Virus record (IMG/VR): IMGVR_UViG_3300030451_003752
Location: 1 to 42,426 of that record
Strand: one strand, 5' to 3'
Source: a virus
Length of the DNA stretch: 42,426 nucleotides
In this document: positions 5,127 through 42,426 of the stretch, piece after piece
How the letters are laid out: every line of letters starts with the position of its first letter
How positions within the stretch are numbered: the first letter of the stretch is position 1
The notes under the pieces: model-generated
What the model was told of the DNA's origin: nothing
What the model saw: only the letters and a program-made list of their open reading frames with translations
Databases searched by the model: none
Program-made: the position numbers and the translations under genes

Positions 5127-5147
5127 ACTTTATTATTACATGTTTCA

Positions 5148-8100
5148 CTAAATACATAAACTAACGTTATTTACTGAGCCATTTGTAGTTATTTGAAATT
5201 TTAAATGATTTTCATCTGGATTATTTGATTGGTCTTCTAATCCAACATACCAAGCGTTTTGTCCATTAAACACTGATGTACCTGCGGCGGAAGTATAAAT
5301 AGTGTCGCCTTCTGTTGGTAAAGTGCCATTCCCCTCAAACCATGCTTCCTGATTTGCTGAGTCATTACATACTTGACTTTGATTTGTATTACCAGCAGAT
5401 CTATAAAAACTTTTAACACTTGAAGAAATTATCGTTATTGCTAAATTTGTTTCAGCAAATAAACCACCAACATCAGTTACTCTTATTGTTAAAGTATAAG
5501 TATCACCAGCTGTTAAAGACGATGTATTCGTTGTAAGAACACCTGTTTGACCTCCTATTGCAAATTTATTAGCACTATTACCAGCTGAAATACTAAAAGT
5601 TAAACTATTAGTTTGTGCTGAAACTTTACCTGCACCATTAGTAGCACTATAGGTCCCCACAGTAGTTCCAGAGCTTGAATTATTAGATACATTTACTGAA
5701 CTAAATGGCGCAACTAAAGTAGGCGCAATATTTGTTAATGTTATAGTTTTTGTTTCTGTATGTTCATTTCCTCCACTATCTGTTACTTTAATTTCAAAAC
5801 TAAAAGTATCTTCAGGTCTATTTCTAAACTCGTGGCCTAAATGTGCAATACCAGTAGCGGTTCTTAATGCACCTGATGCTATTTGAAATTCATTAATTCT
5901 ATTTGTGTTGCCACCGTCTGTTACAGATTCTAAAGTATATGTTTCACCCGATGGAGAACCACCATTTGTATCTGTGTAAGTCAATGAAGCTATTTGTGTA
6001 TTTGCCGCAATATTTTCTGCAAAAGTATTTGCTGAAATATTTATACCCGACGGTGTTGAGCCTAGAGAAGCTTGTATTGCTTCGTTTAAATCTGATAATT
6101 TTCCGCCGGTTGATGTTTCAAAATATATATCCAATGCTGAAATAAATGGATCTGTTTCTAATACACATAATTTAGATGTACTAGGGCCGTTACCGCCGCC
6201 AAAACCGTCAGGTATTTCAGCCATAATAGGTTTTCTTTTAAAGTTAACAATAGCTTGACTTTCTTTTATATTGGCATTTCCTGAATCTGAATTATCAAAT
6301 TGGTCTTGAGTTCCTAATGCAATAATTTCAACAAAATCAGTTGTAGTTTGTTGTTTATGTCCGTTACCCACTATTCCATCTGCAATACCAGTTGCGTCTA
6401 CATTTAATATTCTAGGTAATAGTTTTGTTTTTGATGATGCAATTTGATTATCTAAACTACCATCAATTATATCTCTTGGCACTTTATTAACATTATCACC
6501 AAATAAAGTAATAAAGGAACTTTTTCCTGTATTACCACTTTCATTTATGTTATCTATTAAAGATGGAACATATACATTGTAATATTCTTGTTGCGCTTGT
6601 TTTACAACAACTTTATAAGAATACCAGCCATAAGGATTTGTATTTTTATCATAAACATCACTTATTGTTGCACCAAAATCCATATTTAATGCTGTCCCAT
6701 TCCATCTATTAGCTGCTACAAAACCTTCACCACCATCTGAATTATCGCCATCATTATTTGTATCTGTCATAGGTGTTATAGCGTCTGAAGATGTATCTCT
6801 TGGTGTAATATACGTTGTATTTGCTGTTGGCAAAAATACTGTTGATTGTCTACCATATCTATCAGCTAAAACTAAACCTACAGAATATTCTCTAGCTTGT
6901 TTTACAGAATGCAATAAATATTGCGAGTTATATTCTTCTTGATCTCTACTAGTAACACTAATATTATCTTTTCTTTCTATAAGATTTGTTATTGGTCTAT
7001 TTAATTTAAAATTACCATATATAATTCTATTACCAGAAACCTCTTGTGCTGCTGCTTTCATAGGAACTATATCAGCTACTCTTGTAATATCTGATTCTGG
7101 TAAGGTTTTTATTGGTTTAGTTGAATCGTATACATATTCAATACCAAATTTTAATTTAGCTTTTGCGTCAGAAGCAGGTTCGGCTCTATGTTTTATTATA
7201 TTATCTAAACTTGTTTGCCCTGTAGGTATTTTTATAGTATCTACAATTTTTACAGCAGGGCTATCAGATTCTGCATATACTATTTCAACTCTTTTAATTT
7301 TTAATGGGTTAGTATATTGATAATAATTTGTATCACTCCCAGGTTTAAAAAAGTATAATTTTTCATTATGAAATATACCTAAATTTGCAGGTATTTCTTC
7401 ATTAAAAGTTATTGTAGATGTATCTCCTAAATCAGCAGCTTCAGTTATAGAAGCAACCGTATATTTATCACCTCTAGCGGTTAGCATTGTTGTTGTATTA
7501 TCAATAACACCTGAGGCTTGACCAGTACCAGGTATACCAATACTATGAATACTTTGATTTGAACTTGCAGCTCCTACCATATGACCATCAACACTTAATG
7601 AACTATCTTTTACACCAGCGTCAGCCGAAGCCACATTATTTTTGTCTTCTTCAGATGGTAAATCTATAAATAAATGCACACGGTTTACCATGTTTTGAAA
7701 AACATCCATTACAGTAGCTTTTTGAGTTGCCATTGCTTCGGTTTGCGTTATTAATCCAGCTTGGCCTGATTTAAAGCTACCGTGATTTATATTTTTGCCT
7801 TTACCCGGTAAAAAACATGTTTGTGTAAAAGGTGATATTAAAGAAACTTCATTATTATCATATACATATCTATATCCAAATTTTACAAACTTATCTCTTA
7901 AGTGTAAACTTGGAACCGTTGAAGAAGCTACTTTAGTTAATTTTACTTTAGGGGCCGAATAAGGTGCAAATTGCGCAACGCTAATTCTATCTTCAAAAAA
8001 ATCATCGTCAGGAAATGAAGTGCTATCAATATTTATTCTTCTAGGTTGATTATAATTATCTGTCCAAAATAATAAATTATCTAATAAGTTAACGTGATGT

Positions 8101-8798
8101 ATATGGTGATTTTTTGAAAAATTTAATCTTTTATTATCTATTATTGGTGAAGGAGAGGTGTTTTGTATTGTATTGAATCTATATATTCTACATGTATGCG
8201 TAAATGTTAAAGTTACATCATCTAACACTGTTTCACTAGATTGCGCTTTATTTAATGTTATTGTATGAACATTACTAGATGTAGAAACTGCTTGAACATA
8301 TGTATCTGTCGCAACACCAGTACCAGTAACTTTCATTCCGACTTGAATATCATAATTAGAAGCGTTAGCTATTTCTATAGTATTATGATTAGTTGTATCG
8401 TCGTCATGAGTTACATCATTACCATCACTCCCTCCTAAAACAACCACGTCAGCAGCAGTTTTATATAACAATACATCATCGCTTGCTGCATTGCCAGCAA
8501 AAGAAGTTACAAACCAAAATACATCGCCAGTTTGAGAATTATTATAAAATCCAATAGTTTCCCATAAAGAAAATGTATCTTCCCCAACCGCATCAATACT
8601 AACTGGTAAACCTGTAATTGTTCCACCAGCATAAGCATAATCATTTCCTAATACATTTTGTACAGCTCCAACGCTTGATCCTTCAGACTTTGAAACAGTT
8701 ATATTTTGTGCGTCTCTATACTGGCCGTTAGGTAATAATCTATCATCAAGGTCTTTGTTCATTTTACCTTGAATAAAGTTATTTTTAATTACTGGCAT
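5148..8798 (-). CDS. Giant tail hub/stabilization protein with cadherin-like domains and Cys-terminated module (1216 aa)
   Basis: The N-terminus (NNFIQGKMNKDLDDRLLPNG, then YRDAQNITVSKSEGSSVGAV) has the layout of phage packaged-DNA stabilization/tail nozzle proteins, which begin with a beta-propeller-like body. Residues about 915-1015 form a cadherin-like repeat (TFAENIAANT, then FSFEIKVTDSGG, ending TKTITLTNIAPT). A second, weaker repeat spans about 1020-1125 (YTLTIRVTDVGG). The last ~85 residues form a Cys-bracketed module (VCNDSANQEAWF to SLCI) shared with three other tail proteins here. The cadherin-like domains probably act in calcium-dependent adhesion or as spacers. It is the largest protein encoded in the window. 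Confidence 0.82.
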   Translation of the reverse strand: MPVIKNNFIQGKMNKDLDDRLLPNGQYRDAQNITVSKSEGSSVGAVQNVLGNDYAYAGGTITGLPVSIDAVGEDTFSLWETIGFYNNSQTGDVFWFVTSFAGNAASDDVLLYKTAADVVVLGGSDGNDVTHDDDTTNHNTIEIANASNYDIQVGMKVTGTGVATDTYVQAVSTSSNVHTITLNKAQSSETVLDDVTLTFTHTCRIYRFNTIQNTSPSPIIDNKRLNFSKNHHIHHVNLLDNLLFWTDNYNQPRRINIDSTSFPDDDFFEDRISVAQFAPYSAPKVKLTKVASSTVPSLHLRDKFVKFGYRYVYDNNEVSLISPFTQTCFLPGKGKNINHGSFKSGQAGLITQTEAMATQKATVMDVFQNMVNRVHLFIDLPSEEDKNNVASADAGVKDSSLSVDGHMVGAASSNQSIHSIGIPGTGQASGVIDNTTTMLTARGDKYTVASITEAADLGDTSTITFNEEIPANLGIFHNEKLYFFKPGSDTNYYQYTNPLKIKRVEIVYAESDSPAVKIVDTIKIPTGQTSLDNIIKHRAEPASDAKAKLKFGIEYVYDSTKPIKTLPESDITRVADIVPMKAAAQEVSGNRIIYGNFKLNRPITNLIERKDNISVTSRDQEEYNSQYLLHSVKQAREYSVGLVLADRYGRQSTVFLPTANTTYITPRDTSSDAITPMTDTNNDGDNSDGGEGFVAANRWNGTALNMDFGATISDVYDKNTNPYGWYSYKVVVKQAQQEYYNVYVPSLIDNINESGNTGKSSFITLFGDNVNKVPRDIIDGSLDNQIASSKTKLLPRILNVDATGIADGIVGNGHKQQTTTDFVEIIALGTQDQFDNSDSGNANIKESQAIVNFKRKPIMAEIPDGFGGGNGPSTSKLCVLETDPFISALDIYFETSTGGKLSDLNEAIQASLGSTPSGINISANTFAENIAANTQIASLTYTDTNGGSPSGETYTLESVTDGGNTNRINEFQIASGALRTATGIAHLGHEFRNRPEDTFSFEIKVTDSGGNEHTETKTITLTNIAPTLVAPFSSVNVSNNSSSGTTVGTYSATNGAGKVSAQTNSLTFSISAGNSANKFAIGGQTGVLTTNTSSLTAGDTYTLTIRVTDVGGLFAETNLAITIISSSVKSFYRSAGNTNQSQVCNDSANQEAWFEGNGTLPTEGDTIYTSAAGTSVFNGQNAWYVGLEDQSNNPDENHLKFQITTNGSVNNVSLCI

Positions 8799-14016: not shown

Positions 14017-16434
14017 TTATCTTGGTTCAAATTGTTCTAAACCAAACCCACCTAAGTTGTCAAAACCTGCGGATTCAAAATCTTTTGGTGGTGAATTTGT
14101 TTTTCTTTGATTTATAAGCTCACTCTGTTGTGTAGCTTGTATTTTAGTTCTTTCGTCTTTACGATCTTCTTTATACTTCTCTTTATTTTTAATCACGTCT
14201 GCCTCAGCTTGTTTAAGCTGCATATTGAGATTAAACTCATATTCCATCAATTCTTTTTTGATTGCAGCTTCTTTTTCCATTTTTTGTATATCGAACTGGC
14301 TTTGAGCTTGAGCGATTTTAACTTTGCTTTCAGCCACTCCTTGCTGCTTTTGCATGTCAGCTGCTGCAGCTGCTTGCGCAGATTGAGCATTAACTTGTGA
14401 CTGCATTTGCATGTTTTGCATTTGAATTTGTCTGTCATTTTCTGCTTTCTTTTTTCTTCTTAGTTTTAATAATTGATTTGCTAATTTGAGATTTTTAATT
14501 TCTCTTACATCAATAGCATCTTCTAACTCAATTTGTTTTTGAGTTATAGCCATTTGAATATTATTTTCAAGTAATTGTTTTTCTTCTTCGTCAGGTGCTA
14601 ATTCTAAAAATATACCAAAATCATGTATATGTAAATCACTAACTTCATTCAATGTAGCTACATCAATTTGGCCTAACGATTGTAAAAATGATTGTCTAGT
14701 ATTACCGTATTCTAATACATCTGCAATTCTTAATGAAACTGCTTCAGCTGTTTTTAAAGTAACATACAGCCCTCCTTGTAATATATGTCTTGTAGCTGTA
14801 TTACTATTAGCGGCTGCTATTTTTTGTATACCAACTAAAGCATTTTTATCTGGCGTGCTTCCATCTCTAGCTTCATTTAATCCCGTTACATCTCTTAACA
14901 TTTGTAAATAATAATTATAAGATTGTATTAAACTAGCTATTTTAGCATTACCGCCGCCTGCTTTTAATTCTTGAATAGGTACTCTTCCTTGATTAAAATC
15001 ACCGTCTTGCGTCATTGATCTACCAATAACAGAACCTGTTTGGAAATACATATTCAATGCTTCTTGCGGATTATAGTTTGTACCATTACCTAAATCTACT
15101 TCAGCAATACCATCCGCATCTAAGAATACTCCGTCTGGAACCATTCGTGAGAGTACTTGTTGTAATTTAAGATGCGTTATTTGAATCATGTCAGCAAATG
15201 TTGTCATTCTGCCAACTAAAGATTCAGGCTTACCTTTATATATTCTTGGCGCAACAATATTATAACTCATTGCACATTTTGTAATATCAGACTTTGGTCT
15301 AGTCATATTGACGGCTTTACGCCATCTTAACATACCTTCATGCCCAACAACTTTTACACCCTCATATATACATTCAATAGATCTATTTACTTTTTCAAAT
15401 CTATTATCTTCGCCTGTAGGTGGATTAAATTCATCTGTTTTTTCAATTGCTTTTTGTGCGCCAGTAGCTGTTTGTTTTATTTTATAAACTTGGTTTTCAA
15501 AAGTTTTATATTCAAAATATAATAATTGAACATATTGGCGATCTTCATCAGCAGAGGATGTAACAGCTTTATGATAAACTCTATTAGCAGTTCCACTATC
15601 CTGTATTTCTTCAACTTGTTGATTAGTTAATTCAGGAAATTGTTTTTTAAGCTCATGTATCGAAACTCTTCTTATTTCACCAACATAATATAAATCATCA
15701 AAATATGGAGATTCTGTATATGAATAAACTAAATCTGCAGGGTCAACGTATTCTAATTTAATACCTTCTGCTGTATTAAAACTATTTTTTATACAACCAA
15801 TACCTAAAACAGTTATATCATAATCTAGTCTTTTCTTTAATAAATCATATTTATTAAAATCAAAAACATTAGTTATTGCTTGTTCTTGTGCTATTTCAAT
15901 ACCTTGTTTATAATTTAATTGCATGTGAAGATTTAATTCCTCTTCGCTATCAGGTATTTCTGCAACAGGATTAGTTAATGTTTTAACACCAACCTCTTGT
16001 TCTAATTTTAAAGCAAAGTCTTTAGCATACATATCATTCAACATGTCATTAACAAATTGAGTTCTTTCCTTTGCCGCTATAGGATCTGTTGAATATGCTT
16101 TTAAATCATAAGTTCTTTCTTGTATACCATTTACAACTATATCTACAAACTTAGGTATAATAGGTACAGGCTTCCAATCTAAATTAAGATAAGACAAATC
16201 ACCATTAATTGATAATTCATCTTTATACTTTTGTATACTTTGTTCACCTCTTGCATATAATCTTAATCTATGAAAATTGTCTCTATTTGCAAAATAACGT
16301 GTACTTCCTGAGTCTTTTTTAAACCACTCTGATTCTATAGCCTTACCAACTTGGAGGCCATATGATATATCAGCTTTCTCGTAATCATAAACAGCTTGAC
16401 TCGGAAAAATACCTTTTGTTTTAATTGTTGACAT
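14017..16434 (-). CDS. Portal protein
   Basis: The protein has 805 aa, a size seen in large podoviral portals. The N-terminal region has the typical portal start with NFHRLRLYARGEQSIQKYKD, followed by VDIVVNGIQERTYDLKAYS. The body has wing-like beta segments such as LEYVDPADLVYSYTE. The region EARDGSTPDKNALVGIQKIA resembles the stem-proximal segment of portals. The last ~170 residues form a Gln/Ala/Lys-rich coiled coil, which would make a barrel. It is encoded directly after the large terminase and before the scaffold. The portal is the dodecameric ring through which DNA enters and leaves. Confidence 0.88.
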   Translation of the reverse strand: MSTIKTKGIFPSQAVYDYEKADISYGLQVGKAIESEWFKKDSGSTRYFANRDNFHRLRLYARGEQSIQKYKDELSINGDLSYLNLDWKPVPIIPKFVDIVVNGIQERTYDLKAYSTDPIAAKERTQFVNDMLNDMYAKDFALKLEQEVGVKTLTNPVAEIPDSEEELNLHMQLNYKQGIEIAQEQAITNVFDFNKYDLLKKRLDYDITVLGIGCIKNSFNTAEGIKLEYVDPADLVYSYTESPYFDDLYYVGEIRRVSIHELKKQFPELTNQQVEEIQDSGTANRVYHKAVTSSADEDRQYVQLLYFEYKTFENQVYKIKQTATGAQKAIEKTDEFNPPTGEDNRFEKVNRSIECIYEGVKVVGHEGMLRWRKAVNMTRPKSDITKCAMSYNIVAPRIYKGKPESLVGRMTTFADMIQITHLKLQQVLSRMVPDGVFLDADGIAEVDLGNGTNYNPQEALNMYFQTGSVIGRSMTQDGDFNQGRVPIQELKAGGGNAKIASLIQSYNYYLQMLRDVTGLNEARDGSTPDKNALVGIQKIAAANSNTATRHILQGGLYVTLKTAEAVSLRIADVLEYGNTRQSFLQSLGQIDVATLNEVSDLHIHDFGIFLELAPDEEEKQLLENNIQMAITQKQIELEDAIDVREIKNLKLANQLLKLRRKKKAENDRQIQMQNMQMQSQVNAQSAQAAAAADMQKQQGVAESKVKIAQAQSQFDIQKMEKEAAIKKELMEYEFNLNMQLKQAEADVIKNKEKYKEDRKDERTKIQATQQSELINQRKTNSPPKDFESAGFDNLGGFGLEQFEPR

Positions 16435-18648
16435 CTATTGTATTATTTTTGAAAAATTGCCTCTATTATCGTATTTGGCAAAACTGAAATTAACTTTGTC
16501 TTTTAATTCTTTTATTTGTTTAGGTGTATATCTATGTTTATTACATGCCATAATTGCTAGCCCTGAGCTAATCGCGGCATCAAACTTTGTTCTTTTATTT
16601 ATATCAAACTTAGACCAATCATTTAAAGTTTCATTAAAATACATATTTCCATATTCTCCATCAATCTTTATTCCTACATATTCATTTATATAACTTTCTA
16701 TTGCCGCAGCGTGTGCTTGTCTTATATCTTCGCTTGAGTTAGGTATACCACCTATTTCTTTTTCTGTAACAGATAATTTATTAAATGCTTTATCTGGTCT
16801 ATTCATAGAGTAACCTCTATATCCTCTTCTTTTTAAATAATATAATAATCTTGGTTTATTATTTTCTGCTAGTATAGGCATCCCATAAAATACTAAAGCC
16901 ATTAAAACATCTTCAAAAAACATTTCAGCAGTTTGCGGTCTAGCTATATATTCTAAAAAAAACTGATTAGCAGGTGCATCATCCATACTAAACTTAGTTA
17001 AACCGTGCAATGAACCTTTAGATCCTTTGCCATCGGTAGTTCCTGATATATCATAACTATCACAACCAAAAGCACCTATATGTTCGTTACCAGGATATTT
17101 AATACCGTTTTTTATTATTATACGGTTTTGGCTATCTATACCCGGAACCCAGCTGACTTTAAACCTTCCGTTAGGATTTGGCGTAAACTGGACTTTTGTG
17201 TCTTTAATTCCATTTTGCCACGAAAACGTTCCAGTCGTAAGCAGTGCGCTATATTTTGCTTCTTCATTAAAATCTATTTGTTCATATATTTTAGCAAGAT
17301 TAAATATGCTATTTTTAGTTTCATCTCTGAAAGCGTGTTCTTCAGTACGTGGAAACTGCCTATAAAATTCATTTAATGCGTCTTGATCACCTTTTAAGCC
17401 TTCAACTTCGTTTTCCCAGTGTTCAATAACTCCGACATCGATAATTTGTCCATCGCTATCTTTAATTGTTTCTTCTGGCGTATTGAATACAGGTAATCCA
17501 TAAGAATCAATGAATCCTTCGAAATTCCATTCCATAGGTATGAACAAACTATATAATCCCGAACGAGTCTGTCCGTTGCGGTTTCTTTTTGTAACATCTG
17601 AGTCATTATATAATTTTTTAAAGTTTTCACCTCCTTTATCTAATGAATTACTTGTTGAACCCATCATACACTTGCCAATAACTCTACTACCTAATCTTAA
17701 TGTAGTTTTTGTTACACGCCAGTTATTTAATATGTTTTCAGGTTTTTCCCATTTACCTGCTTCGTCATGTACTAATAACGCTAGCTTTTCACCATCATAA
17801 CTATTATCCCCTGTGTTTTTCCAATCTATGGTTGTATCGAGTCCCTCGAGCTCCTCGGTCCGCTCATTTGAGATAATCTTCCTCCTCGTGAATTTTGAGG
17901 CTGGTACTCTATATGCCAGTTCGGTTTTGGGACGGTCCATTCCATCTTGTATCGGTTTAAAAAAGAACGGATAATTGATCGATATTGGTACGACCTTATC
18001 TGTGAACATTTTTTTGGCATCCGCCCCAGATTTGGACAATATTCCAAACCGTGAATCGGAACTAATTGTTGCTGAATTAACCACTTCTCCTGAGGCCATA
18101 AACGAAAATCCTGATCGACGGTTTTTGAGATAGCACATTCCATAAGATCTGGTATCGGCTTTACAAGCTTCCCAAAAGATGAAGAAGAGTCTATTGGCTT
18201 CTCTATAGTCTGGAGCCCCAACATCAATTTTGGTCCACTGCAAGTACATATAGTGAGTCCCAGTAATATAAGTAGGAACATTCTTGTTGTAAAACCAAAA
18301 GCCTTCATCGCGCCTGGTAAATTCATTATCGATATACCCATGCCATTTGTTTTTAAATTCAGCGGGTAAATCTTTCCAATCAAATATGGTTTTTAGCTTT
18401 GATAATTCTTTTGGATATTCGGCTTTTACCCATTTGTTGTTTTTCTTTTCTAATTTTTTCGGCGCAGGAGGCAATGCTATTTTTAAATTTTGTATGCTAT
18501 ACACTTCACCTATTTGCCCCGTCTTGCTAATTACAACTATATCATGTTCTTTATTGTAACCGTATTCCCATCTTTTTGCTTTATTAAGCCTTTTAATTGT
18601 ATTAATTTTTATAGGCTCTATAACGCTATATAATGTTTGTTTATACAT
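16435..18648 (-). CDS. terL: Terminase large subunit
   Basis: The protein has 737 aa. It packages DNA into the procapsid with an N-terminal ATPase and a C-terminal RNase H-fold nuclease. A deviant Walker A lies at about residues 174-182 (LKNRRSGFS). Walker B with the catalytic acid is LLVHDEAGKW at about 291-300. A coupling motif GSTSN is at about 330-334. The nuclease domain begins near GAFGCDSYDISG, about residues 525-536, with candidate metal-binding Asp530 and Asp533. The 3' end adjoins the portal gene with no gap. Between about 17825 and 18310 (residues ~113-275) codon choice becomes more GC-rich than on either side, which suggests mosaic recombination. Confidence 0.92.
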   Translation of the reverse strand: MYKQTLYSVIEPIKINTIKRLNKAKRWEYGYNKEHDIVVISKTGQIGEVYSIQNLKIALPPAPKKLEKKNNKWVKAEYPKELSKLKTIFDWKDLPAEFKNKWHGYIDNEFTRRDEGFWFYNKNVPTYITGTHYMYLQWTKIDVGAPDYREANRLFFIFWEACKADTRSYGMCYLKNRRSGFSFMASGEVVNSATISSDSRFGILSKSGADAKKMFTDKVVPISINYPFFFKPIQDGMDRPKTELAYRVPASKFTRRKIISNERTEELEGLDTTIDWKNTGDNSYDGEKLALLVHDEAGKWEKPENILNNWRVTKTTLRLGSRVIGKCMMGSTSNSLDKGGENFKKLYNDSDVTKRNRNGQTRSGLYSLFIPMEWNFEGFIDSYGLPVFNTPEETIKDSDGQIIDVGVIEHWENEVEGLKGDQDALNEFYRQFPRTEEHAFRDETKNSIFNLAKIYEQIDFNEEAKYSALLTTGTFSWQNGIKDTKVQFTPNPNGRFKVSWVPGIDSQNRIIIKNGIKYPGNEHIGAFGCDSYDISGTTDGKGSKGSLHGLTKFSMDDAPANQFFLEYIARPQTAEMFFEDVLMALVFYGMPILAENNKPRLLYYLKRRGYRGYSMNRPDKAFNKLSVTEKEIGGIPNSSEDIRQAHAAAIESYINEYVGIKIDGEYGNMYFNETLNDWSKFDINKRTKFDAAISSGLAIMACNKHRYTPKQIKELKDKVNFSFAKYDNRGNFSKIIQ

Positions 18649-36574: not shown

Positions 36575-36825
36575 AATTTATTATTACGTGACAGGAGCTA
36601 CTTATTAAATGTATAATAATAGCTAACGTCGTATTGTTGTAAGATATAAGGAAGTAATGGGTTACACCTCGTATTTCCCTCGTAGGCCCACCATATAAAA
36701 CCCGATTTATTTACCCCACCGGGGCCTGTTTAGCGCGTATTCGGCCAGATGTTTCACCTTTTACGTGCGTAACACGGGACTCTGCGGATAATAAGTATGT
36801 AAATAACCTATAAAAACTTAATAAT
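36575..36825. promoter_or_regulatory. Divergent switch region between late (left) and early (right) blocks
   Basis: This stretch separates the leftward late block from the rightward genes. It holds CCCC-ACC-GGGG (36714-36724), an alternative GGCCC/GGGCC pairing (36685-36689 with 36722-36726), and a palindrome TTACG-TG-CGTAA (36761-36772) that abuts the first GGATAATA element. Leftward, TACGA on the minus strand (36629-36633) is followed by TTATTATA after 9 bases (minus strand, 36619-36612), a weak variant of the rightward element. A late promoter should be here; I cannot fix its position. Confidence 0.55.
36771..36793 (+). promoter_or_regulatory. 23-bp GGATAATA element, copy 1
   Basis: AACACGG, then GGATAATA starting 13 bases after the CACG. 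It lies upstream of the 56-aa membrane protein (ATG at 36826). The fifth base of the CACGA core is G here, the only deviation among seven copies. Confidence 0.7.
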
Positions 36826-36996
36826 ATGAAAACTTTATTCTCACACATCACAATCTACCAAGTAACACAAACAATGTTTAAGCTATGGGCAGCAGCGTTA
36901 GGCGTGTTAGCGGTAACCGGTATAATCGGAATCATATACACGATAATAACAAACCCAAGTGTAATCGACAATGCAACGTTCGGCATCTACGGATAA
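36826..36996 (+). CDS. Small membrane protein A (56 aa)
   Basis: The translation starts MKTLFSHITIYQVTQTMFKL. It has one hydrophobic segment at about residues 20-41 (WAAALGVLAVTGIIGIIYTI), then a short polar tail. It is the same length as, and related to, the 56-aa protein at 39132-39302 (shared MK-x-x-F-x-H-x-T-I, VT, M and TGI). The gene is flanked by GGATAATA elements on both sides. The role is unknown; action at the host inner membrane, for example superinfection exclusion, is only a guess. Confidence 0.72.
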   Translation: MKTLFSHITIYQVTQTMFKLWAAALGVLAVTGIIGIIYTIITNPSVIDNATFGIYG

Positions 36997-37019
36997 AGCA
37001 CGAGTACACACGGATAATA
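36997..37019 (+). promoter_or_regulatory. 23-bp GGATAATA element, copy 2
   Basis: AGCACGA, then GGATAATA with the fixed 13-base step. It begins directly after the stop codon of the 56-aa gene and precedes the 101-aa gene (ATG at 37055). Confidence 0.75.
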
Positions 37020-37054
37020 ATATAAATAATTAATAACAAATAAAATTAAATAAT

Positions 37055-37360
37055 ATGAACACTAAATTAAATGAAGCAATCGCGAAGTTATCAAAGAAAG
37101 AATTATCTGAGATATTCCCGCCAATCACAAGAAAGAACTTTGTAGTAAGAAAGTCATGGTACGGTAGAAATCAAATCATAACCTTTGTAAACAACAAGAA
37201 ACAAAAGGTAACGTACAACCACGACGAGGTACTTAAAGTAATGTTACCAAAGCTAAGCATCATGCCATGCTGGATTAAGCGAGGCTACTGGTCTCAATCA
37301 ACAGCGATGCCAAGCAACGTGAGAGACAAGGTAATCGAAAGAATCGACCTTGCTAAGTAA
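37055..37360 (+). CDS. Hypothetical early protein (101 aa)
   Basis: It is a basic protein starting MNTKLNEAIAKLSKKELSEI. It has a central segment with RKSWYGRNQIITFVNNKKQK and ends with a helical region SNVRDKVIERIDLAK. I do not recognise it. It stands alone between a GGATAATA element and a long non-coding stretch. Basicity and length would suit a nucleic acid-binding or host-takeover protein. Confidence 0.72.
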   Translation: MNTKLNEAIAKLSKKELSEIFPPITRKNFVVRKSWYGRNQIITFVNNKKQKVTYNHDEVLKVMLPKLSIMPCWIKRGYWSQSTAMPSNVRDKVIERIDLAK

Positions 37361-37367
37361 AGCATCG

Positions 37368-37421
37368 GGCCAGAGTATTCGATAAAACTCCCGGGATAAC
37401 GTAATGCGACCCGGGCTGGCC
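37368..37421 (+). terminator. Composite GC hairpin after the 101-aa gene
   Basis: GGCCAG (37368-37373) pairs with CTGGCC (37416-37421), and CCCGGG (37390-37395) with CCCGGG (37410-37415). The two 3' arms are contiguous. There is no T-tract, so it may be a structured RNA or a pausing signal rather than a simple terminator. Confidence 0.5.
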
Positions 37422-37422
37422 T

Positions 37423-37524
37423 GTATAGCATAATGTATAGCAAAGCGGTGTTCAGAGAGACATCAGTAAATACAAAGAAGCACCGAGTTTCGGTGTATAG
37501 CAATGTATAGCATTGCGTATAGCA
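37423..37524 (+). repeat. Five direct GTATAGCA repeats
   Basis: Exact copies start at 37423, 37435, 37495, 37505 and 37517, with steps of 12, 60, 10 and 12 bases. The 10-12 base steps are close to one helical turn, as in iterons that bind an initiator or repressor. Confidence 0.75.
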
Positions 37525-37557
37525 AAAACTGTGCCGGAAATTAGTTTTATGTCGTAT

Positions 37558-37650
37558 TGTCATATATACTTACTAACATGACAAACTGACAGTTCGGTAA
37601 ATAGTGTGACAAAAGCTTACTATTATTACTATATTTACTACCTAATGTCA
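37558..37650. repeat. TGACA/TGTCA repeat cluster
   Basis: TGTCA occurs at 37558 and 37646, and TGACA at 37579, 37587 and 37607, so sites face both ways around an AT-rich core. They may be binding half-sites. Five-base words are short, so chance contributes. Confidence 0.45.
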
Positions 37651-37741
37651 CTATTTTTACTTCTCACACAAGGAAGTCTAGTGTAATACTATATATACTT
37701 TTTCTACTAACAAACAAAGTACATACTTCTATTACAAACAA

Positions 37742-37764
37742 AACACGATACCATTTGGATAATA
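37742..37764 (+). promoter_or_regulatory. 23-bp GGATAATA element, copy 3
   Basis: AACACGA, then GGATAATA with the fixed 13-base step, followed by TATAATTGAATAT. It precedes the cluster of tiny genes that starts at 37789. Confidence 0.78.
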
Positions 37765-37788
37765 TAATTGAATATAAAAAATAATAAA

Positions 37789-37914
37789 ATGAAATATTTA
37801 CACCCAATAACACAAGAAGAAATTACAAGAGATGAACTATTTGAAATAATGTTCGGTAAAAGATTTATGAAAAGTAATGACAAAGGAGCAATTAAAGAAT
37901 ATAAAGAAATATAA
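37789..37914 (+). CDS. Tiny early protein (41 aa)
   Basis: It starts MKYLHPITQEEITRDELFEI, is mostly charged helix and ends in a Lys/Glu-rich tail. It is the first gene of a cluster whose members touch or overlap. One base separates its stop from the next ATG. The family is unknown. Confidence 0.6.
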   Translation: MKYLHPITQEEITRDELFEIMFGKRFMKSNDKGAIKEYKEI

Positions 37915-37915
37915 T

Positions 37916-38053
37916 ATGGAACAATTTGAAAATTTAATGACGGAAATAGGTTTCCAAATAACTAAACTAAATGATGGTACAATTGACAAAGACGATTTTA
38001 TCAATGCGATGGAGCAAATCCATGAATACTATAACACTACAATAACAATTTAA
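37916..38053 (+). CDS. Tiny acidic protein, EF-hand-like fragment (45 aa)
   Basis: It starts MEQFENLMTEIGFQITKL. The stretch NDGTIDKDDFINAM resembles an EF-hand calcium loop (D-G-T-I-D-K-D-D-F), but one loop in a 45-residue protein is weak evidence for calcium binding. It is a member of the tiny-gene cluster. Confidence 0.58.
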   Translation: MEQFENLMTEIGFQITKLNDGTIDKDDFINAMEQIHEYYNTTITI

Positions 38054-38058
38054 TAACT

Positions 38059-38175
38059 ATGAGTTACTATATATCAGAATGTTGCGGAGCTTCCCCTTGG
38101 TTAGGTAATACTGACTACGGAAGATGTGGAGATTGCAAAGAATGTTGTGACTTCCTAAACGAAGACGAATTATGA
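38059..38175 (+). CDS. Cys-rich mini zinc-binding candidate (38 aa)
   Basis: The product has two Cys groups, ECCGAS near the start and RCGDCKECCDF further on. With six cysteines in 38 residues, the layout suits a zinc knuckle or small ribbon. It ends in an acidic tail. The stop overlaps the next ATG (ATGA), so translation is probably coupled. Confidence 0.6.
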   Translation: MSYYISECCGASPWLGNTDYGRCGDCKECCDFLNEDEL

Positions 38176-38291
38176 CTAATCAATTAAAAGTAATAGACGG
38201 ATGTGTCTATGTAAGCGAAATCAATGAATGGGTGAGTATCGATTCACTCGAAAAGTGTAACCAAATGCTAGAATACTATGAAGGTAAATAA
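38172..38291 (+). CDS. Tiny hypothetical protein (39 aa)
   Basis: It starts MTNQLKVIDGCVYVSEINEW and ends in a helix with EKCNQMLEYYEGK. Overlap of four bases with the preceding gene and a one-base gap before the next support it as a real gene in the cluster. The family is unknown. Confidence 0.55.
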   Translation: MTNQLKVIDGCVYVSEINEWVSIDSLEKCNQMLEYYEGK

Positions 38292-38292
38292 T

Positions 38293-38490
38293 ATGCGAGA
38301 ACTACTGAAATATGTAGAAGACAAAAAGAAACAAAGAAGACACAGACATATTGAAATATTGAAAGTGTATGGCGAATGTAAAGGAATGGGTAACAGAAGA
38401 TACAAAGTACCACAAAAGAGTACATTCGGAAAATTTAAAAAGTATAGCTACACTGCAAGGTGGAATGATTACAAAGCTAACACGAACTAA
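38293..38490 (+). CDS. Small basic protein (65 aa)
   Basis: I start it at 38293 (MRELLKYVEDKKKQRRHRHI), one base after the previous stop. An ATG at 38278 would overlap the previous gene by 14 bases. It is rich in Lys, Arg and Tyr (FGKFKKYSYTARWNDYKA) and likely binds nucleic acid or protein. Its end overlaps the fourth GGATAATA element. Confidence 0.62.
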   Translation: MRELLKYVEDKKKQRRHRHIEILKVYGECKGMGNRRYKVPQKSTFGKFKKYSYTARWNDYKANTN

Positions 38491-38501
38491 AATGGATAAT
38501 A
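38479..38501 (+). promoter_or_regulatory. 23-bp GGATAATA element, copy 4
   Basis: AACACGA, then GGATAATA with the fixed 13-base step. The element overlaps the last codons of the upstream gene and precedes the gene at 38518. Confidence 0.78.
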
Positions 38502-38517
38502 AAATAAAATAAAAACT

Positions 38518-38742
38518 ATGAAAAACTTATACCAACAATTACAACCTAAGTACAAAAAAGTACTAAACGAAAATGTAAAACGATACCAAAGTGTACAACT
38601 AATCAAATACACTCTAATGTCTAAAACAATGTGGTCACAACTAACAGTTGAAAATGTAAAAGACCTAATGCTCTGGGCTGGTATTGATTCAAGAAAACTA
38701 ACAATTGACGGTCTAGTCTACGGTGAAAACATAATCAAATGA
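38518..38742 (+). CDS. Hypothetical early protein (74 aa)
   Basis: It starts MKNLYQQLQPKYKKVLNENV and is helical, with Lys/Gln/Tyr-rich and later hydrophobic segments (VKDLMLWAGIDSRKL). It overlaps the next gene by four bases (ATGA). It lies directly after a GGATAATA element and heads an overlapping gene string up to 39302. Confidence 0.65.
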   Translation: MKNLYQQLQPKYKKVLNENVKRYQSVQLIKYTLMSKTMWSQLTVENVKDLMLWAGIDSRKLTIDGLVYGENIIK

Positions 38743-38951
38743 AAGAATTCAAAGACTATTCAGCAGAAAAAATTGCAGACAAACTTAATCAAGTAATCGA
38801 GTTTGAAGCAAAGTACGGTGAGTCAACACGAACTATAGCATGGAAAAAGTGGTGTACAGACGTGAACTACCGAAGACGAGAATGGGCATTCAGGCAAGGT
38901 GTTGCCGAGTATGCAAAGTATAACGCACATAAAGCACTAAATATACGATGA
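38739..38951 (+). CDS. Hypothetical early protein (70 aa)
   Basis: It is rich in Ala, Lys, Trp and Tyr, starting MKEFKDYSAEKIADKLNQVI, with a basic centre TAWKKWCTDVNYRRREWAF-like in character. It overlaps both neighbours by four bases, which implies coupled translation. The family is unknown. Confidence 0.65.
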   Translation: MKEFKDYSAEKIADKLNQVIEFEAKYGESTRTIAWKKWCTDVNYRRREWAFRQGVAEYAKYNAHKALNIR

Positions 38952-39148
38952 CTAAATTAAATATAATACTGGAACTAGCGCAAGCTTTAACACAGTACGA
39001 CCAAGGTGAAGCTGCATTCACCGAGATGAAAGCTAACGGTACATTAAACCACAGCAACTATCTCAGAAGAAAAGAAGATAACGCAGATGATTTTATTAAC
39101 GCAATCAGAGGATTGTTAAACAGAATTGAAAATGAAACAAATATTTAA
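38948..39148 (+). CDS. Hypothetical early protein (66 aa)
   Basis: It starts MTKLNIILELAQALTQYDQG and is predicted to be helical throughout. It ends with a helix IRGLLNRIENETNI. Its 3' end overlaps the start of the second 56-aa membrane protein by 17 bases. Confidence 0.65.
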   Translation: MTKLNIILELAQALTQYDQGEAAFTEMKANGTLNHSNYLRRKEDNADDFINAIRGLLNRIENETNI

Positions 39149-39302
39149 ACACTTAACAATAGCAAAAGTAACGAACGTAATGCTTCACGCATTAGCAATA
39201 AGCTTAGGAACAATGGCATTTACAGGAATAGGTTATATGCTATTTTTATTACTAACTGGGCAAGTAACTAACATACATATACCGTGTGACATTTGCTACT
39301 AA
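39132..39302 (+). CDS. Small membrane protein B, paralogue of the 36826-36996 product (56 aa)
   Basis: It starts MKQIFKHLTIAKVTNVMLHA. A hydrophobic segment lies at about residues 20-41 (ALAISLGTMAFTGIGYMLFL). Length (56 aa), N-terminal pattern MK-x-[LI]-F-x-H-[IL]-T-I, VT, M and TGI are shared with protein A. The C-terminus differs (CDICY here, FGIYG there). It is embedded in the overlapping gene string rather than behind its own element. Confidence 0.7.
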   Translation: MKQIFKHLTIAKVTNVMLHALAISLGTMAFTGIGYMLFLLLTGQVTNIHIPCDICY

Positions 39303-39312
39303 ACCTAATACT

Positions 39313-39510
39313 ATGGAAAAATTTAATAGATACAAACAAAACTTAACGAGAGTCGGTGATGAAATATACTCTTACTCTACAAACGTCGCAACAATTGAAT
39401 ACCCAAACTTAATACAACACGGGTGGTGGAGTGTAACAACACAGAAGCATATCAACTATGTTGCAAACGAATTAGGATTAACAATTAAAAAACCATACTT
39501 AAATGAATAA
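39313..39510 (+). CDS. Conserved small phage protein (65 aa)
   Basis: I start it at ATG 39313 (MEKFNRYKQNLTRVGDEIYS) rather than at a GTG at 39286 that would overlap the membrane protein gene. The pattern YSYSTNVATIEYPNLIQHGW then WSVTTQKHINYVANEL is one I know from many phages. The function is not known to me. Its 3' end overlaps the next gene by eight bases. Confidence 0.7.
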   Translation: MEKFNRYKQNLTRVGDEIYSYSTNVATIEYPNLIQHGWWSVTTQKHINYVANELGLTIKKPYLNE

Positions 39511-39766
39511 AAAAGTAAGTAAAGAAGCACAAGAATTATATGACTTGGCTAAGCTACCACCGCCTATGCCAAGACCAAGACGTGTAAAAATGAAAGAACT
39601 AGATAACATTGCAGATGTTGTGGTAGATATACTTGAAGAACATTTAGAACATAATATTGAATGGACTATAAGTGATTGGCCACTCGATGGCAACGATTTC
39701 AACGATGCTATACACCAAATCAAATGCAATGTCGTTCACAAGCTAAATACGAAATACAATGGATAA
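39503..39766 (+). CDS. Hypothetical acidic protein (87 aa)
   Basis: It starts MNKKVSKEAQELYDLAKLPP and has a Pro-rich linker (LPPPMPRPRRVKM), then an acidic helical region (ADVVVDILEEHLEHNIEWTI) and a short C-terminal helix. Its TAA stop lies inside the fifth GGATAATA element. Confidence 0.65.
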   Translation: MNKKVSKEAQELYDLAKLPPPMPRPRRVKMKELDNIADVVVDILEEHLEHNIEWTISDWPLDGNDFNDAIHQIKCNVVHKLNTKYNG

Positions 39767-39768
39767 TA
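39746..39768 (+). promoter_or_regulatory. 23-bp GGATAATA element, copy 5
   Basis: AATACGA, then GGATAATA with the fixed 13-base step, followed by TATAATTGTATG. The next ATG lies only 15 bases from GGATAATA, so the mRNA leader would be very short. Confidence 0.8.
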
Positions 39769-39775
39769 TAATTGT

Positions 39776-39967
39776 ATGAAAATTTGTAAATGTAAAAATA
39801 TAATACCGATCGGTAGAGTCAAGCTAGGTTACAATACCTGTGTTAACTGTTCAACAACGCAACAGTATAGTTATGTACCGATTATTGCGAACAAACAAGT
39901 TCAAGAACTACAAATAGTTTCGCAAGAAGTCTCCGCTTCGGTACATAAAGCTTGGCGAAGAAAGTGA
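39776..39967 (+). CDS. DksA/TraR-type zinc-finger protein candidate (63 aa)
   Basis: The N-terminal CKCKNIIPIGRVKLGYNTCV ending in NC has the spacing CxC...IPxxRxxxG...CVxC of DksA/TraR zinc fingers, which bind RNA polymerase. The long N-terminal coiled coil of DksA is missing. A basic C-terminal helix ends SVHKAWRRK. TraR-like phage proteins act on host RNA polymerase; that role is inferred from the finger only. Confidence 0.6.
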   Translation: MKICKCKNIIPIGRVKLGYNTCVNCSTTQQYSYVPIIANKQVQELQIVSQEVSASVHKAWRRK

Positions 39968-40243
39968 GGTTTAAGTCTGGAAGCAGCGAGGCCTGATAAA
40001 TCATTGCTGCAAAAGACAGTATAAACAGATACGGGTAAGATATTTAAGGTCACACCGACGAACTATGACACCCCATTCCAGTTCTGTCCGCCTCACACAT
40101 TATAAGACCAGTAAGTTTAGCAACGTGGTTCAAACGTGGTCGCGGTAAAATTCCGCAGGGTCTAAAAATATTATGGGTTAAAACACGAAGGACGGTTAAT
40201 ACCTCAGAAAGCGTGGGTATGTGCACGATACCACCCAAGAAAT
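39964..40243 (+). ncRNA. Structured non-coding segment upstream of the tRNA (candidate RNA)
   Basis: G+C is about 40-45% by my count over 40021-40200, above the flanking genes. GTGAGG (39964-39969) pairs with CCTCAC (40091-40096), closing a domain. Inside are hairpins GTCT/AGAC plus GCAGC/GCTGC (39975-40017) and CCGAC-GAACT/AGTTC-x-GTC (40055-40088). A second domain is closed by AGACC/GGTCT (40105-40109 with 40159-40163) and contains GCGG/CCGC (40142-40156). A third hairpin, GGTAT/ATACC, lies at 40216-40232. No good reading frame runs through it. I do not match it to tmRNA, RNase P or SRP RNA. Confidence 0.5.
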
Positions 40244-40318
40244 AGCGGGATGGAGCAGTTTGGTCAGCTCGCTGGGCTCATAACCCAGAGGTCGATAGTT
40301 CGAATCTATCTCCCGCAA
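40244..40318 (+). tRNA. Initiator-type tRNA-fMet (CAT)
   Basis: A full cloverleaf is present. The acceptor is GCGGGA/TCCCGC, with A1 opposite A72 unpaired. The D stem is GAGC/GCTC (A11-T24 pair). The anticodon stem is CTGGG/CCCAG with loop CTCATAA (anticodon CAT at 40279-40281). The T arm is GATAG-TTCGAAT-CTATC. The unpaired 1:72 end, the three G:C pairs next to the anticodon loop and A11-U24 are the hallmarks of bacterial initiator tRNA, not elongator tRNA-Met. CCA is not encoded (A is followed by CT). Confidence 0.93.
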
Positions 40319-40332
40319 CTAAAATTAAAATT

Positions 40333-40494
40333 ATGAAATATATATTTGTATTAGATTTTATGGACGGTCAAGTCTATAGATACGACATGAGAAGTATAAG
40401 TATGAACGAAGAAGATTATCTTTCTTCACAGGGTCATTCATTGTCAAACATAGAGTGGATGTCAACTGATAACCCTGAAGTTATTACAGACTAA
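40333..40494 (+). CDS. Small hypothetical protein after the tRNA (53 aa)
   Basis: It starts MKYIFVLDFMDGQVYRYDMR and continues with an acidic middle (SMNEEDYLSSQGHS) and a Ser/Asp-rich end. It begins 14 bases after the tRNA. The N-terminal FVLDFMDGQVYRYD hints at a small beta sheet. The family is unknown. Confidence 0.65.
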   Translation: MKYIFVLDFMDGQVYRYDMRSISMNEEDYLSSQGHSLSNIEWMSTDNPEVITD

Positions 40495-40516
40495 ATACGA
40501 ACATTAACGGATAATA
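40494..40516 (+). promoter_or_regulatory. 23-bp GGATAATA element, copy 6
   Basis: AATACGA, then GGATAATA with the fixed 13-base step, followed by TTATTGTATG. It overlaps the last base of the upstream stop codon. The next ATG is 15 bases from GGATAATA, as at copy 5. Confidence 0.8.
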
Positions 40517-40523
40517 TTATTGT

Positions 40524-40763
40524 ATGAAAACAAGTGATATAATAAAAGAAAAAGCACACACAAAAATGTGGGCAACGATTAAAGGTCTTGACAGAAAAAT
40601 TACTGAACAAGAACTAGACTTAAAAAATGAAAGCTATAACCCCTTCATACCCAGAGAGTTACACGAACAAGTGTTAGACGGGTGTAAGCAAGAGCGAGAG
40701 CTTTACAAATATTTATTAAGCTTAATCGAACAAGACGGAATTAAATTAAATTATAAATTATGA
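40524..40763 (+). CDS. Hypothetical helical early protein (79 aa)
   Basis: It starts MKTSDIIKEKAHTKMWATIK and looks like a two-helix, charged protein (DRKITEQELDLKNESYNPF, then LYKYLLSLIEQDGIKL). It overlaps the next gene by four bases (ATGA). The family is unknown. Confidence 0.65.
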   Translation: MKTSDIIKEKAHTKMWATIKGLDRKITEQELDLKNESYNPFIPRELHEQVLDGCKQERELYKYLLSLIEQDGIKLNYKL

Positions 40764-41215
40764 GTGAAAAACTAAACTACGATGATGTCGTTCTAAAACT
40801 AGAAGAAGACGGCATAATGCAAGAACCAGATGCGGGATGGTTAATTGAGTACCTAAGTACAGAATACGGTGGTCACTTAGATAACAACAGCTCATGGTCT
40901 GAAAACAAACATGAACTAAAAATATATAGTGAATCCACGTGTGATGGCTATGACATATTTTGGTGTACTGAGGATGAAAAACCTTATGTATGTCAAGATG
41001 GCTATTACTATGAAGACTACCAAGCGTGGTCTGAACAAGCTATCGAAGCACTATCACATGGTCAAAATGTATGGATTGAATCTCACATATGGGATGATAT
41101 GGAATACGATTTTAATCATGAGTTAGAACAGTGGTGGTCTGATGTATATGACGATTTACATGCAGACAAAGTAGATGAATTAATTAACGACGGTTACGAA
41201 TACGAAGACGAATAA
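40760..41215 (+). CDS. Strongly acidic Trp/Tyr-rich protein (151 aa)
   Basis: It is rich in Asp, Glu, Trp and Tyr from end to end, for example QDGYYYEDYQAWSEQAIEAL and HELEQWWSDVYDDLHADKVD, ending NDGYEYEDE. No enzyme motif is visible. Strong acidity combined with many aromatic residues is typical of DNA-mimic anti-restriction and similar phage inhibitors, so such a role is possible but unproven. Confidence 0.68.
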   Translation: MSEKLNYDDVVLKLEEDGIMQEPDAGWLIEYLSTEYGGHLDNNSSWSENKHELKIYSESTCDGYDIFWCTEDEKPYVCQDGYYYEDYQAWSEQAIEALSHGQNVWIESHIWDDMEYDFNHELEQWWSDVYDDLHADKVDELINDGYEYEDE

Positions 41216-41216
41216 T

Positions 41217-41759
41217 ATGAGTACAAGAAATTTAACAATGGTTGTTGACAGACAACACGCAAGAGGTACAGGCAAAGGTCTTGCTATGTCACCTGATAAT
41301 CTTACTAGATATAGTTATGTACATATGTACTTGCATCATGACGGTTATCCTGAATGGCAAGGCGTACAATTAGCAAACTGGGTACTTGCAAACAATAGAC
41401 AAGATGGTACAGCAATGGCATCAAAGCTGGTGCACGATATGTACTACGACAGTTGCTACCTATATGCAGACGTAAATCATATAGACCATCAATATACATA
41501 TATAATATGGACTGGTGATAGAGATAAAACTATGATTGCCTGTCACGATCGGTATAAAGATGAGTGTATATTTGTTGCAACACCAGATGATTTAATTAAA
41601 ACATATTATGATGCTGAAATGGATTATACAGATTTTGCTAATGGTGAAATTAGAAATGATAGAAATACAGAATCACATAAAGTTAATTTAAGCTTGAAAG
41701 ATTATAATGGTGTTAGAAGTAATGCACAAAAAATAATTGATATACTAACTACAGACTAA
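41217..41759 (+). CDS. Conserved phage protein of the STR...HHDGYPE type (180 aa)
   Basis: It starts MSTRNLTMVVDRQHARGTGK and has VHMYLHHDGYPEWQGVQLAN. The pattern with His-Asp-Gly-Tyr-Pro-Glu is one I know from conserved phage proteins of unknown function. A beta sheet with YTYIIWTGDRDKTMIACHD follows. It starts one base after the preceding stop. Confidence 0.7.
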   Translation: MSTRNLTMVVDRQHARGTGKGLAMSPDNLTRYSYVHMYLHHDGYPEWQGVQLANWVLANNRQDGTAMASKLVHDMYYDSCYLYADVNHIDHQYTYIIWTGDRDKTMIACHDRYKDECIFVATPDDLIKTYYDAEMDYTDFANGEIRNDRNTESHKVNLSLKDYNGVRSNAQKIIDILTTD

Positions 41760-41781
41760 ACACGAAGCAACATGGATAATA
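41759..41781 (+). promoter_or_regulatory. 23-bp GGATAATA element, copy 7
   Basis: AACACGA, then GGATAATA with the fixed 13-base step. It begins on the last base of the upstream stop codon. An ATG (41772) lies inside the element, which is why I place the gene start after it, at 41787. Confidence 0.78.
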
Positions 41782-41786
41782 TAAAC

Positions 41787-42074
41787 ATGACAGAAGAAGA
41801 ATACCAAGCATTATATAATCGAATCAAAGCAGATTTATATGATGAATTCATTAACCCTGAAACAGCTACTTATGGGCTTGATGTCTTACGACAAAAGGAA
41901 CCTAAAGAAGATATATATGCAGGGTTAAATGATATGGCTTTTACTGAACGTGAAATAATAAAAGAAGAAATAGAACAACTACAATTAGTATTAAAAAAGT
42001 ATGAAGAAGCAGAAGAATATGAACACGCTGCATTCATGAAAAAAAGAATCGACAACCTCAAAAAAAGATTATGA
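41787..42074 (+). CDS. Small protein with UVR-like C-terminal motif (95 aa)
   Basis: I start it at 41787 (MTEEEYQALYNRIKADLYDE), 13 bases after GGATAATA, since the ATG at 41772 is inside the promoter-like element. The C-terminal ~35 residues (LKKYEEAEEYEHAAFMKKRI then DNLKKRL) match the helical hairpin motif shared by UvrB and UvrC. It overlaps the next gene by four bases. A link to host repair or ClpC-adaptor-type proteins (McsA-like UVR) is possible. Confidence 0.68.
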   Translation: MTEEEYQALYNRIKADLYDEFINPETATYGLDVLRQKEPKEDIYAGLNDMAFTEREIIKEEIEQLQLVLKKYEEAEEYEHAAFMKKRIDNLKKRL

Positions 42075-42426
42075 ATATATTTTTCTTACACCATGACCCT
42101 GCAAAAGCGGCGTCATATGTATACGACAAACATAAAGTTAAGATGATACTTGAGTCTGCTCAAATGCTATGTACTGCTCATCATTGTTATGGTAGCGCAG
42201 AACAAAGAGCCAACGTTCCTTATAAGCAGGCTCATTTAAATCATCCATCAACTATATGGGCTAGACGTTCAAGAACAACTTATATGTGGTTATATGACCA
42301 TATGATTGCTTTAGGCAAAGAGTATACTAAACGATATGGCAAAGAGCATCTCACTATAATTAAATGTAGAGATTTCTTAGCGACACCACCTGCTAATATA
42401 CAAGGCGATGAGTGGGTAGACCCGCC
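42071..42426 (+). CDS. Conserved phage protein, N-terminal part (runs off right edge)
   Basis: It is open for 118 codons to the window edge. It starts MNIFFLHHDPAKAASYVYDK and continues with KVKMILESAQMLCTAHHC, YKQAHLNHPSTIWARRS and EYTKRYGKEHLT. I know this pattern (MNIxxLxxDPxxAAxxxxDKHxVKMxLExAQ) from many marine phages. Some annotations call it a pyrimidine dimer glycosylase, which I cannot confirm from the sequence. Confidence 0.72.
   Translation, partial: MNIFFLHHDPAKAASYVYDKHKVKMILESAQMLCTAHHCYGSAEQRANVPYKQAHLNHPSTIWARRSRTTYMWLYDHMIALGKEYTKRYGKEHLTIIKCRDFLATPPANIQGDEWVDP

What the first reader, a model, noticed from the sequence alone, without database searches (positions are those of the whole stretch)
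36771..41781. Seven-copy 23-bp element AAYACGR-N7-GGATAATA with constant spacing: a phage-specific promoter
The element is seen at 36771, 36997, 37742, 38479, 39746, 40494 and 41759. In each copy GGATAATA starts exactly 13 bases after the first base of YACGR (R is A in six copies, G in copy 1). The base before GG is always C or T. All lie on the plus strand, in gaps or at gene ends, 13-43 bases before an ATG, and none is found in this form in the late block. The constant 23-bp size recalls single-subunit phage RNA polymerase promoters. It does not match the Bacteroidota host consensus (TTTG, N19, TAnnTTTG). At copies 5-7 the mRNA would be nearly leaderless.
Basis: partly seen in the sequence, partly recalled or inferred. 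Interest (0 to 1): 0.85.

Follow-up and report, generated by a model that had tools for sequence, protein, structure and literature searches.

The report
Phage promoter with matching sigma factor
The repeated DNA element is a real start signal for reading the early genes of a family of marine viruses related to the gut crAss-like phages, and it is most likely read by a sigma factor that these viruses encode to redirect the bacterium's own RNA polymerase.

Summary
Seven exact copies lie on the plus strand of the early block, none on the minus strand or in the late block, and none arose in 400 Markov shuffles. The window is a fragment of a marine phage related to crAss-like phages. The element recurs across this family, and about 150 copies show it is longer than described: TTACAAACTAAATACGA-N8-GATAATATAAATR, about 41 bp, with a purine in 99-100% of copies exactly where a sigma-70-type start site would follow a GATAAT -10 box. 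In copy 7 that start site is the A of the ATG. No T7-type or crAss-type RNA polymerase was found in long relatives. Instead they encode a 252-aa sigma-70-family protein. Loci picked by this sigma gene alone carry the element upstream in 40 of 43 cases, and the other three carry the same -10 box with a different upstream box. Four relatives without the element lack the sigma. So "phage-specific promoter" is supported, and the single-subunit-polymerase comparison is not. Best reading: promoter of a phage sigma plus host RNA polymerase core. The window stops about 1.1 kb before the expected sigma gene. No transcript data exist here. What expresses the sigma first is unknown.

The parts
36761..36800 (+). 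Promoter copy 1 (weak match); predicted start G36799; before ORF 36826-36996
   Evidence: 16.2 bits
36987..37026 (+). Promoter copy 2 (weak match); predicted start A37025; before ORF 37055-37360, a family found in all 20 main-type loci compared
   Evidence: (19.6 bits)
37732..37771 (+). Promoter copy 3; predicted start G37770; before ATG 37790
   Evidence: 44.4 bits
38469..38508 (+). Promoter copy 4; predicted start A38507; before ORF 38518-38742
   Evidence: 35.8 bits
39736..39775 (+). Promoter copy 5; predicted start G39774, 2-nt leader; before ORF 39776-39967 (small Cys-rich protein), then tRNA-Met 40244-40319
   Evidence: (43.4 bits)
40484..40523 (+). Promoter copy 6; predicted start G40522, 2-nt leader; before ORF 40524-40763
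   Evidence: 46.5 bits
41749..41788 (+). Promoter copy 7; predicted start A41787 is the A of the ATG of ORF 41787-42074 (leaderless); the upstream in-frame ATG at 41772 is part of the motif
   Evidence: (39.5 bits)
42074..42426 (+). Truncated gene of family phrog_624 (DNA binding protein); in the closest relative the sigma gene starts 1.44 kb after the start of this gene, that is about 1.1 kb beyond the window
14017..16434 (-). Portal protein, late block; used to place the phage
   Evidence: (phrog_6547)
16435..18648 (-). Terminase large subunit, late block; used to place the phage
   Evidence: (phrog_6681)
3867..8798 (-). Two ORFs matching parts of the crassvirus muzzle protein
   Evidence: PF25731

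Best explanation
The element is the promoter of the phage's early/middle genes and is used by a holoenzyme of host RNA polymerase core plus a phage-encoded sigma-70-family factor of about 252 aa. GATAAT is the -10 box, transcription starts 7 nt downstream at a purine, and the conserved upstream boxes (TTACAAA and TAAATACGA) act as the -35/activator region. Shown here: the element, its family-wide conservation, strand and place; the sigma gene; their co-occurrence; and the start-site-like YR signature. Inferred: that this sigma reads this element, the exact start site, that the core enzyme is the host's, and that this phage has the sigma just beyond the window. Open: what expresses the sigma first (low-level host transcription with feedback, or delivery in the virion).
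For: (1) Independent sampling: loci fetched by the sigma gene alone carry the element upstream in 40 of 43 with at least 8 kb of upstream DNA; 323 sites on the sigma strand against 7 on the other; 0 for the reversed matrix. The three exceptions keep GATAATATAAnTR and swap the upstream box. (2) MW202828, elemoE, phi18:3 and phi38:1 lack both element and sigma. (3) In 151 sites chosen without looking past position 20, position 26 is a purine in all and position 25 a pyrimidine in 82%: a YR start exactly 7 nt after the T of GATAAT. (4) ATG spikes at position 26, and 39 of 42 ATGs at position 24 do not open an ORF, as expected if they lie upstream of the transcript. (5) The sigma matches FliA over residues 30-244 (E 5.6e-11), phrog_351 RNA polymerase sigma factor (E 3.1e-19) and sigma chains by fold (Z 11-13). 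(6) The FliA consensus -10 is GCCGATAA (PMC2859248), which shares GATAA. (7) No polymerase was found. (8) The closest relative has six sites and an intact sigma in the same order.
Against: No transcript or binding data. Co-occurrence could reflect shared descent within one clade. In a few copies the ATG of a believable gene lies at position 20 or 24 (L118 7462, L125 1794, L267, L278, L385 8798), so a transcript starting at position 26 could not express that gene from its own promoter. The sigma gene lies downstream of the promoters it would need. The sigma itself is not inside the window.
Confidence: 0.7

Rival explanations
1. The element is a promoter for a phage-encoded or virion-carried RNA polymerase (T7-type single subunit, or the crAss-type two-barrel enzyme), starting at or near GG.
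For: Two conserved blocks at fixed spacing; AATACGA resembles part of the T7 promoter (own knowledge); crAss-like relatives use a virion polymerase for early genes (PMC10136315); copies with the ATG at position 20 fit a start at GG.
Against: PF00940 in 1 of 30 records, and that one has a single copy of the element. The phi14:2 polymerase finds nothing in 16 long family records, although the same query finds 139 phage records down to 25% identity. The giant late protein's conserved C-terminal part shows no polymerase signature. In many relatives the first G is not a G. A start at GG would put a useless AUG in many leaders.
Confidence: 0.1
2. Host RNA polymerase with host sigma reads the -10 box while a phage activator binds the upstream direct repeat TACRA-N6-TACRA (MotA- or PhoB-like layout); the phage sigma serves other promoters, such as the late ones.
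For: TACRA is repeated 11 bp apart, both halves in 178 of 298 sites; the upstream box varies between lineages independently of sigma region 4; HTH-like and DNA-binding proteins are encoded next to the sigma.
Against: GATAATATAA is not the Bacteroidota sigma-A box TAnnTTTG (PMC9723704); no one candidate activator was shown to be present in all lineages (the 204-aa HTH-like protein is missing in L320); linkage of sigma and element is nearly complete.
Confidence: 0.14
3. The element acts in the RNA, as a translation or processing signal before early genes.
For: Always just before start codons, often overlapping the stop codon of the preceding gene.
Against: The most conserved part includes bases upstream of the start site proposed here; distance to the ATG varies widely; a -10 box and a YR signature are not expected of an RNA signal.
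Confidence: 0.04
4. It is an operator for a phage repressor or a replication-protein site, not a promoter.
For: Repeated protein-binding-like boxes; the sister phage MW202828 carries a palindrome in the same kind of positions.
Against: Not a palindrome, strictly one orientation relative to genes, and carries -10 and start-site features.
Confidence: 0.02

Closest known systems
phiEco32 / phage 7-11 sigma factor and its promoters (PMC4331800)
   Same: Lytic phage with functional and structural gene clusters in opposite directions, a phage sigma distantly related to the sigma-A family, and a phage-specific promoter found as a repeated motif.
   Different: There the consensus is a short TAATGTATA-type box serving middle and late genes while host promoters serve the upstream functional genes; here a 41-bp element with extra upstream boxes precedes the early genes from the first one on, and no late-block copies were found in the window.
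SPO1 gp28 / gp33-34 and T4 gp55 phage sigma factors
   Same: Phage sigma redirects host RNA polymerase core.
   Different: Other hosts, other promoter sequences, distant proteins; SPO1 and T4 factors act on middle or late genes (PMC9429907 and own knowledge).
FliA / sigma-28 (group 3 sigma)
   Same: Best solved-structure match over nearly the whole length (1rp3); FliA -10 consensus GCCGATAA shares GATAA.
   Different: FliA -35 is TAAAGTTT 11 bp upstream of the -10 (PMC2859248); here the TAAA is 4 bp nearer to GATAA and a further box lies upstream. The phage protein has a RIPEH segment like the RIPVH of primary sigma factors.
Virion RNA polymerase of crAss-like phage phi14:2
   Same: Related portal, terminase and muzzle genes; the same early/late layout.
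   Different: No such polymerase detected in this family; phi14:2 has no matrix hit (maximum 0.8 bits).

Membership tests
Sigma-70-family transcription factor (the phage protein) | Sigma regions 2 and 4 in order | tested here: met
   Pfam Sigma70_r2 and r4 just under cut-off (21.2 and 21.7 bits); profile match to FliA 30-244, E 5.6e-11; phrog_351 E 3.1e-19
Sigma-70-family transcription factor (the phage protein) | Fold of sigma factors | tested here: met
   AlphaFold model mean pLDDT 75; best fold matches are sigma chains, VIA Z 11-13, with the domains better matched singly than in their relative placing
Sigma-70-family transcription factor (the phage protein) | Binds RNA polymerase core and directs it to the element | not testable with these tools
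   needs biochemistry
Phage-sigma promoter regulon | Repeated motif upstream of phage genes, one orientation, above chance | tested here: met
Phage-sigma promoter regulon | Sigma gene and motif occur together and are absent together | tested here: met
   40 of 43 loci plus 3 variants; four relatives without either
Phage-sigma promoter regulon | -10 box with a start site about 7 nt downstream | tested here: inconclusive
   sequence signature only: R at position 26 in 151/151 and 296/298; starts not measured; a few copies conflict
T7-type single-subunit RNA polymerase promoter | Cognate polymerase gene in the phage | tested here: not met
   PF00940 absent from 29 of 30 records; many records are not proven complete
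T7-type single-subunit RNA polymerase promoter | About 23 bp, conserved from -17 to +6 including the bases just before the start | tested here: not met
   conservation spans about 41 bp and the bases just before GG are largely free
crAss-type virion RNA polymerase promoter | Cognate two-barrel polymerase gene | tested here: not met
   no match to the phi14:2 enzyme in 16 long family records; single-sequence search, so a very distant one is not excluded
Bacteroidota sigma-A promoter | TTTG, spacer, TAnnTTTG | tested here: not met
   the matrix has no such boxes; a strict scan finds none at the early block start

The most novel reading that the evidence does not exclude
The sigma factor is carried in the virion or otherwise delivered at once, so that a sister lineage of crAss-like phages uses an injected sigma factor where crAss-like phages use an injected RNA polymerase; and the promoter has three parts, with a fixed -10 box read by the sigma and a fast-changing upstream box read by a second phage protein, giving leaderless early mRNAs.
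Probability: 0.12. Interest if true: 0.8.

Novelty: new variant of a known kind. Interest (0 to 1): 0.6.

Why it matters
It gives an abundant, uncultured group of marine phages a readable gene-control code: one matrix finds their early promoters, with one sigma gene beside them. It suggests that relatives of crAss-like phages take over transcription in different ways (a virion polymerase in one lineage, a sigma factor in another). The lineages with the same -10 box but other upstream boxes offer a natural experiment on how phage promoters and their readers change.

Tried and rejected
Virion polymerase of the crAss type: considered first because the window has crAss muzzle, portal and terminase relatives; not found. 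Giant late protein as polymerase: its conserved C-terminal part has a HAD-like segment (DFDDT) and a hydrophobic end, with no Pfam match or polymerase signature. Reading the upstream boxes as the target of sigma region 4: not supported by covariation, since L321 changes the box but not region 4. A host-type promoter upstream of the early block to start sigma expression: no conserved one found. The same de novo motif procedure on elemoE gave only weak blocks (17.5 bits), and on MW202828 a different palindrome. INPHARED holds no close homologue of the sigma (best 25-35% identity). The paper on the phi14:2 polymerase is not held in the library, so its promoters could not be compared from the text.

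Full report
What the window is. The record is a 42,426-base linear IMG/VR fragment. Its minus-strand block encodes a portal protein, terminase large subunit, crassvirus muzzle protein, GroEL and tail fibres, so it is a relative of crAss-like phages. The nearest named record is MW202828 (63% terminase identity), followed by Flavobacterium elemo phages and Cellulophaga phi18:3 and phi38:1. The plus strand from about 36.6 kb is the early block of small genes ("early" is inferred from position and from the layout of crAss-like phages, PMC10136315).

The observation. All seven copies are real, exact and on one strand. None occurs in the late block, and none occurs in 400 Markov shuffles. One small correction: copy 2 begins AG rather than AA.

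It is a family trait. Relatives found through the portal protein carry 5-8 copies each in several records where the early block is covered. In 30 long records chosen from that scan, matches within each record are all on one strand, up to nine per record, and the reversed control gives none. Terminase, portal and early genes place the records read in full in one family with the window.

The true element. Aligning 151 distinct sites shows conservation from position -12 to 27, counted from the Y of YACGR: TTACAAACTAAATACGA, seven to eight free bases, then GATAATATAAATR. A matrix of this length separates sites (mostly 22-50 bits; window copies 1 and 2 at 16.2 and 19.6) from shuffles (maximum 9.2), and every hit in the records scanned lies on the early strand. 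The upstream part holds a direct repeat TACRA-N6-TACRA with an 11-bp period, both halves present in 178 of 298 sites.

Where transcription would start. The 151 sites were chosen only by bases up to position 20. Beyond that, position 25 is a pyrimidine in 82%, position 26 a purine in 100%, and position 27 A or T in 98%. Position 26 lies 7 nt after the last T of GATAAT, the standard distance of a sigma-70 start site (established knowledge). ATG codons peak at position 26, while 39 of 42 ATGs at position 24 open no ORF. Against this, a few copies have the ATG of a believable gene at position 20 or 24.

Which enzyme. T7-type polymerase was found in only one of 30 records, one with a single copy of the element. 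The phi14:2 virion polymerase detects 139 phage records but none of 16 long records of this family. Instead, about 3 kb downstream of the last main copy lies a 252-aa protein. Its profile matches FliA over nearly the whole length (E 5.6e-11) and phrog_351 sigma factor, and its predicted fold matches sigma chains.

Sigma and element go together. In 80 loci fetched by the sigma alone, 43 have at least 8 kb upstream, and 40 of these carry the element; 323 sites are on the sigma strand and 7 on the other. The three apparent exceptions carry GATAATATAAnTR with other upstream boxes: TTCGAATnTTAATACGA in L320, CCCCC...TACTA in L321, CACGGACTTAT in L358. Loci fetched by the gene at window 42074 give 294 sites on the expected strand against 2. 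The four related named phages without the element have no sigma. In the closest relative (97% at that gene) the sigma starts 1.44 kb after the start of the gene at window 42074, so the window ends about 1.1 kb too early to show it.

Mechanism. Host core plus phage sigma initiating at position 26 is the best reading (0.7). The constant -10 box fits the conserved sigma. The upstream box changes without a matching change in sigma region 4, so a second protein may read it. The loop is incomplete: the sigma gene is downstream of its own promoters, and no conserved host-type promoter was found before the block. Feedback from low-level transcription or delivery in the virion are both possible and untested.

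Known or new. Phage sigma factors with their own promoters are known from phiEco32 and phage 7-11 (PMC4331800) and from SPO1 and T4 (PMC9429907). The host consensus TAnnTTTG (PMC9723704) does not fit; the FliA -10 GCCGATAA (PMC2859248) partly does. I found no report of such a system in this phage family in the searched library, which is not a complete search of the literature. I therefore class it as a new variant of a known kind.

Noticed in passing
L256 43745-50000 and L257 (MW202828 early block): The nearest named relative has 14 exact copies of the palindrome GTGTCGTTAACGACAC, all between 43.7 and 55.2 kb, mostly just before early start codons, in place of the window's element; it may be an operator or another kind of promoter.
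   Followed up: partly
L320, L321, L358 upstream of the sigma gene: Same -10 box but entirely different upstream boxes in three lineages, without a matching change in sigma region 4.
   Followed up: partly
L315 2403, L317 502, L325 2105, L329 2294, L345 4003, L349 2414, L350 1698: Single copies of the element on the opposite strand near the start of the early block, facing the late block, in a few genomes.
   Followed up: partly
39776-39967: A 63-aa protein conserved in nearly all relatives, with a C-x-C ... C-x2-C pattern that by eye recalls the TraR/DksA zinc finger; no Pfam match.
   Followed up: partly
37055-37360: Small protein of a family found in all 20 main-type loci and the three variant loci compared, among the first early genes; only a sub-threshold match to Tad2-like (E 0.12).
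   Followed up: partly
37361-37740: Non-coding stretch with several GTATAGCA repeats; a similar repeat is seen beside the variant promoters of L321.
   Followed up: no
39968-40243: Non-coding stretch of about 275 bases before the tRNA-Met; no credible Rfam match besides the tRNA.
   Followed up: partly
1-1233 (minus strand): Start of a late protein cut by the window's end, in the place where relatives have a giant protein of 2000-3000 aa with a HAD-like segment and a strongly conserved C-terminal part.
   Followed up: partly
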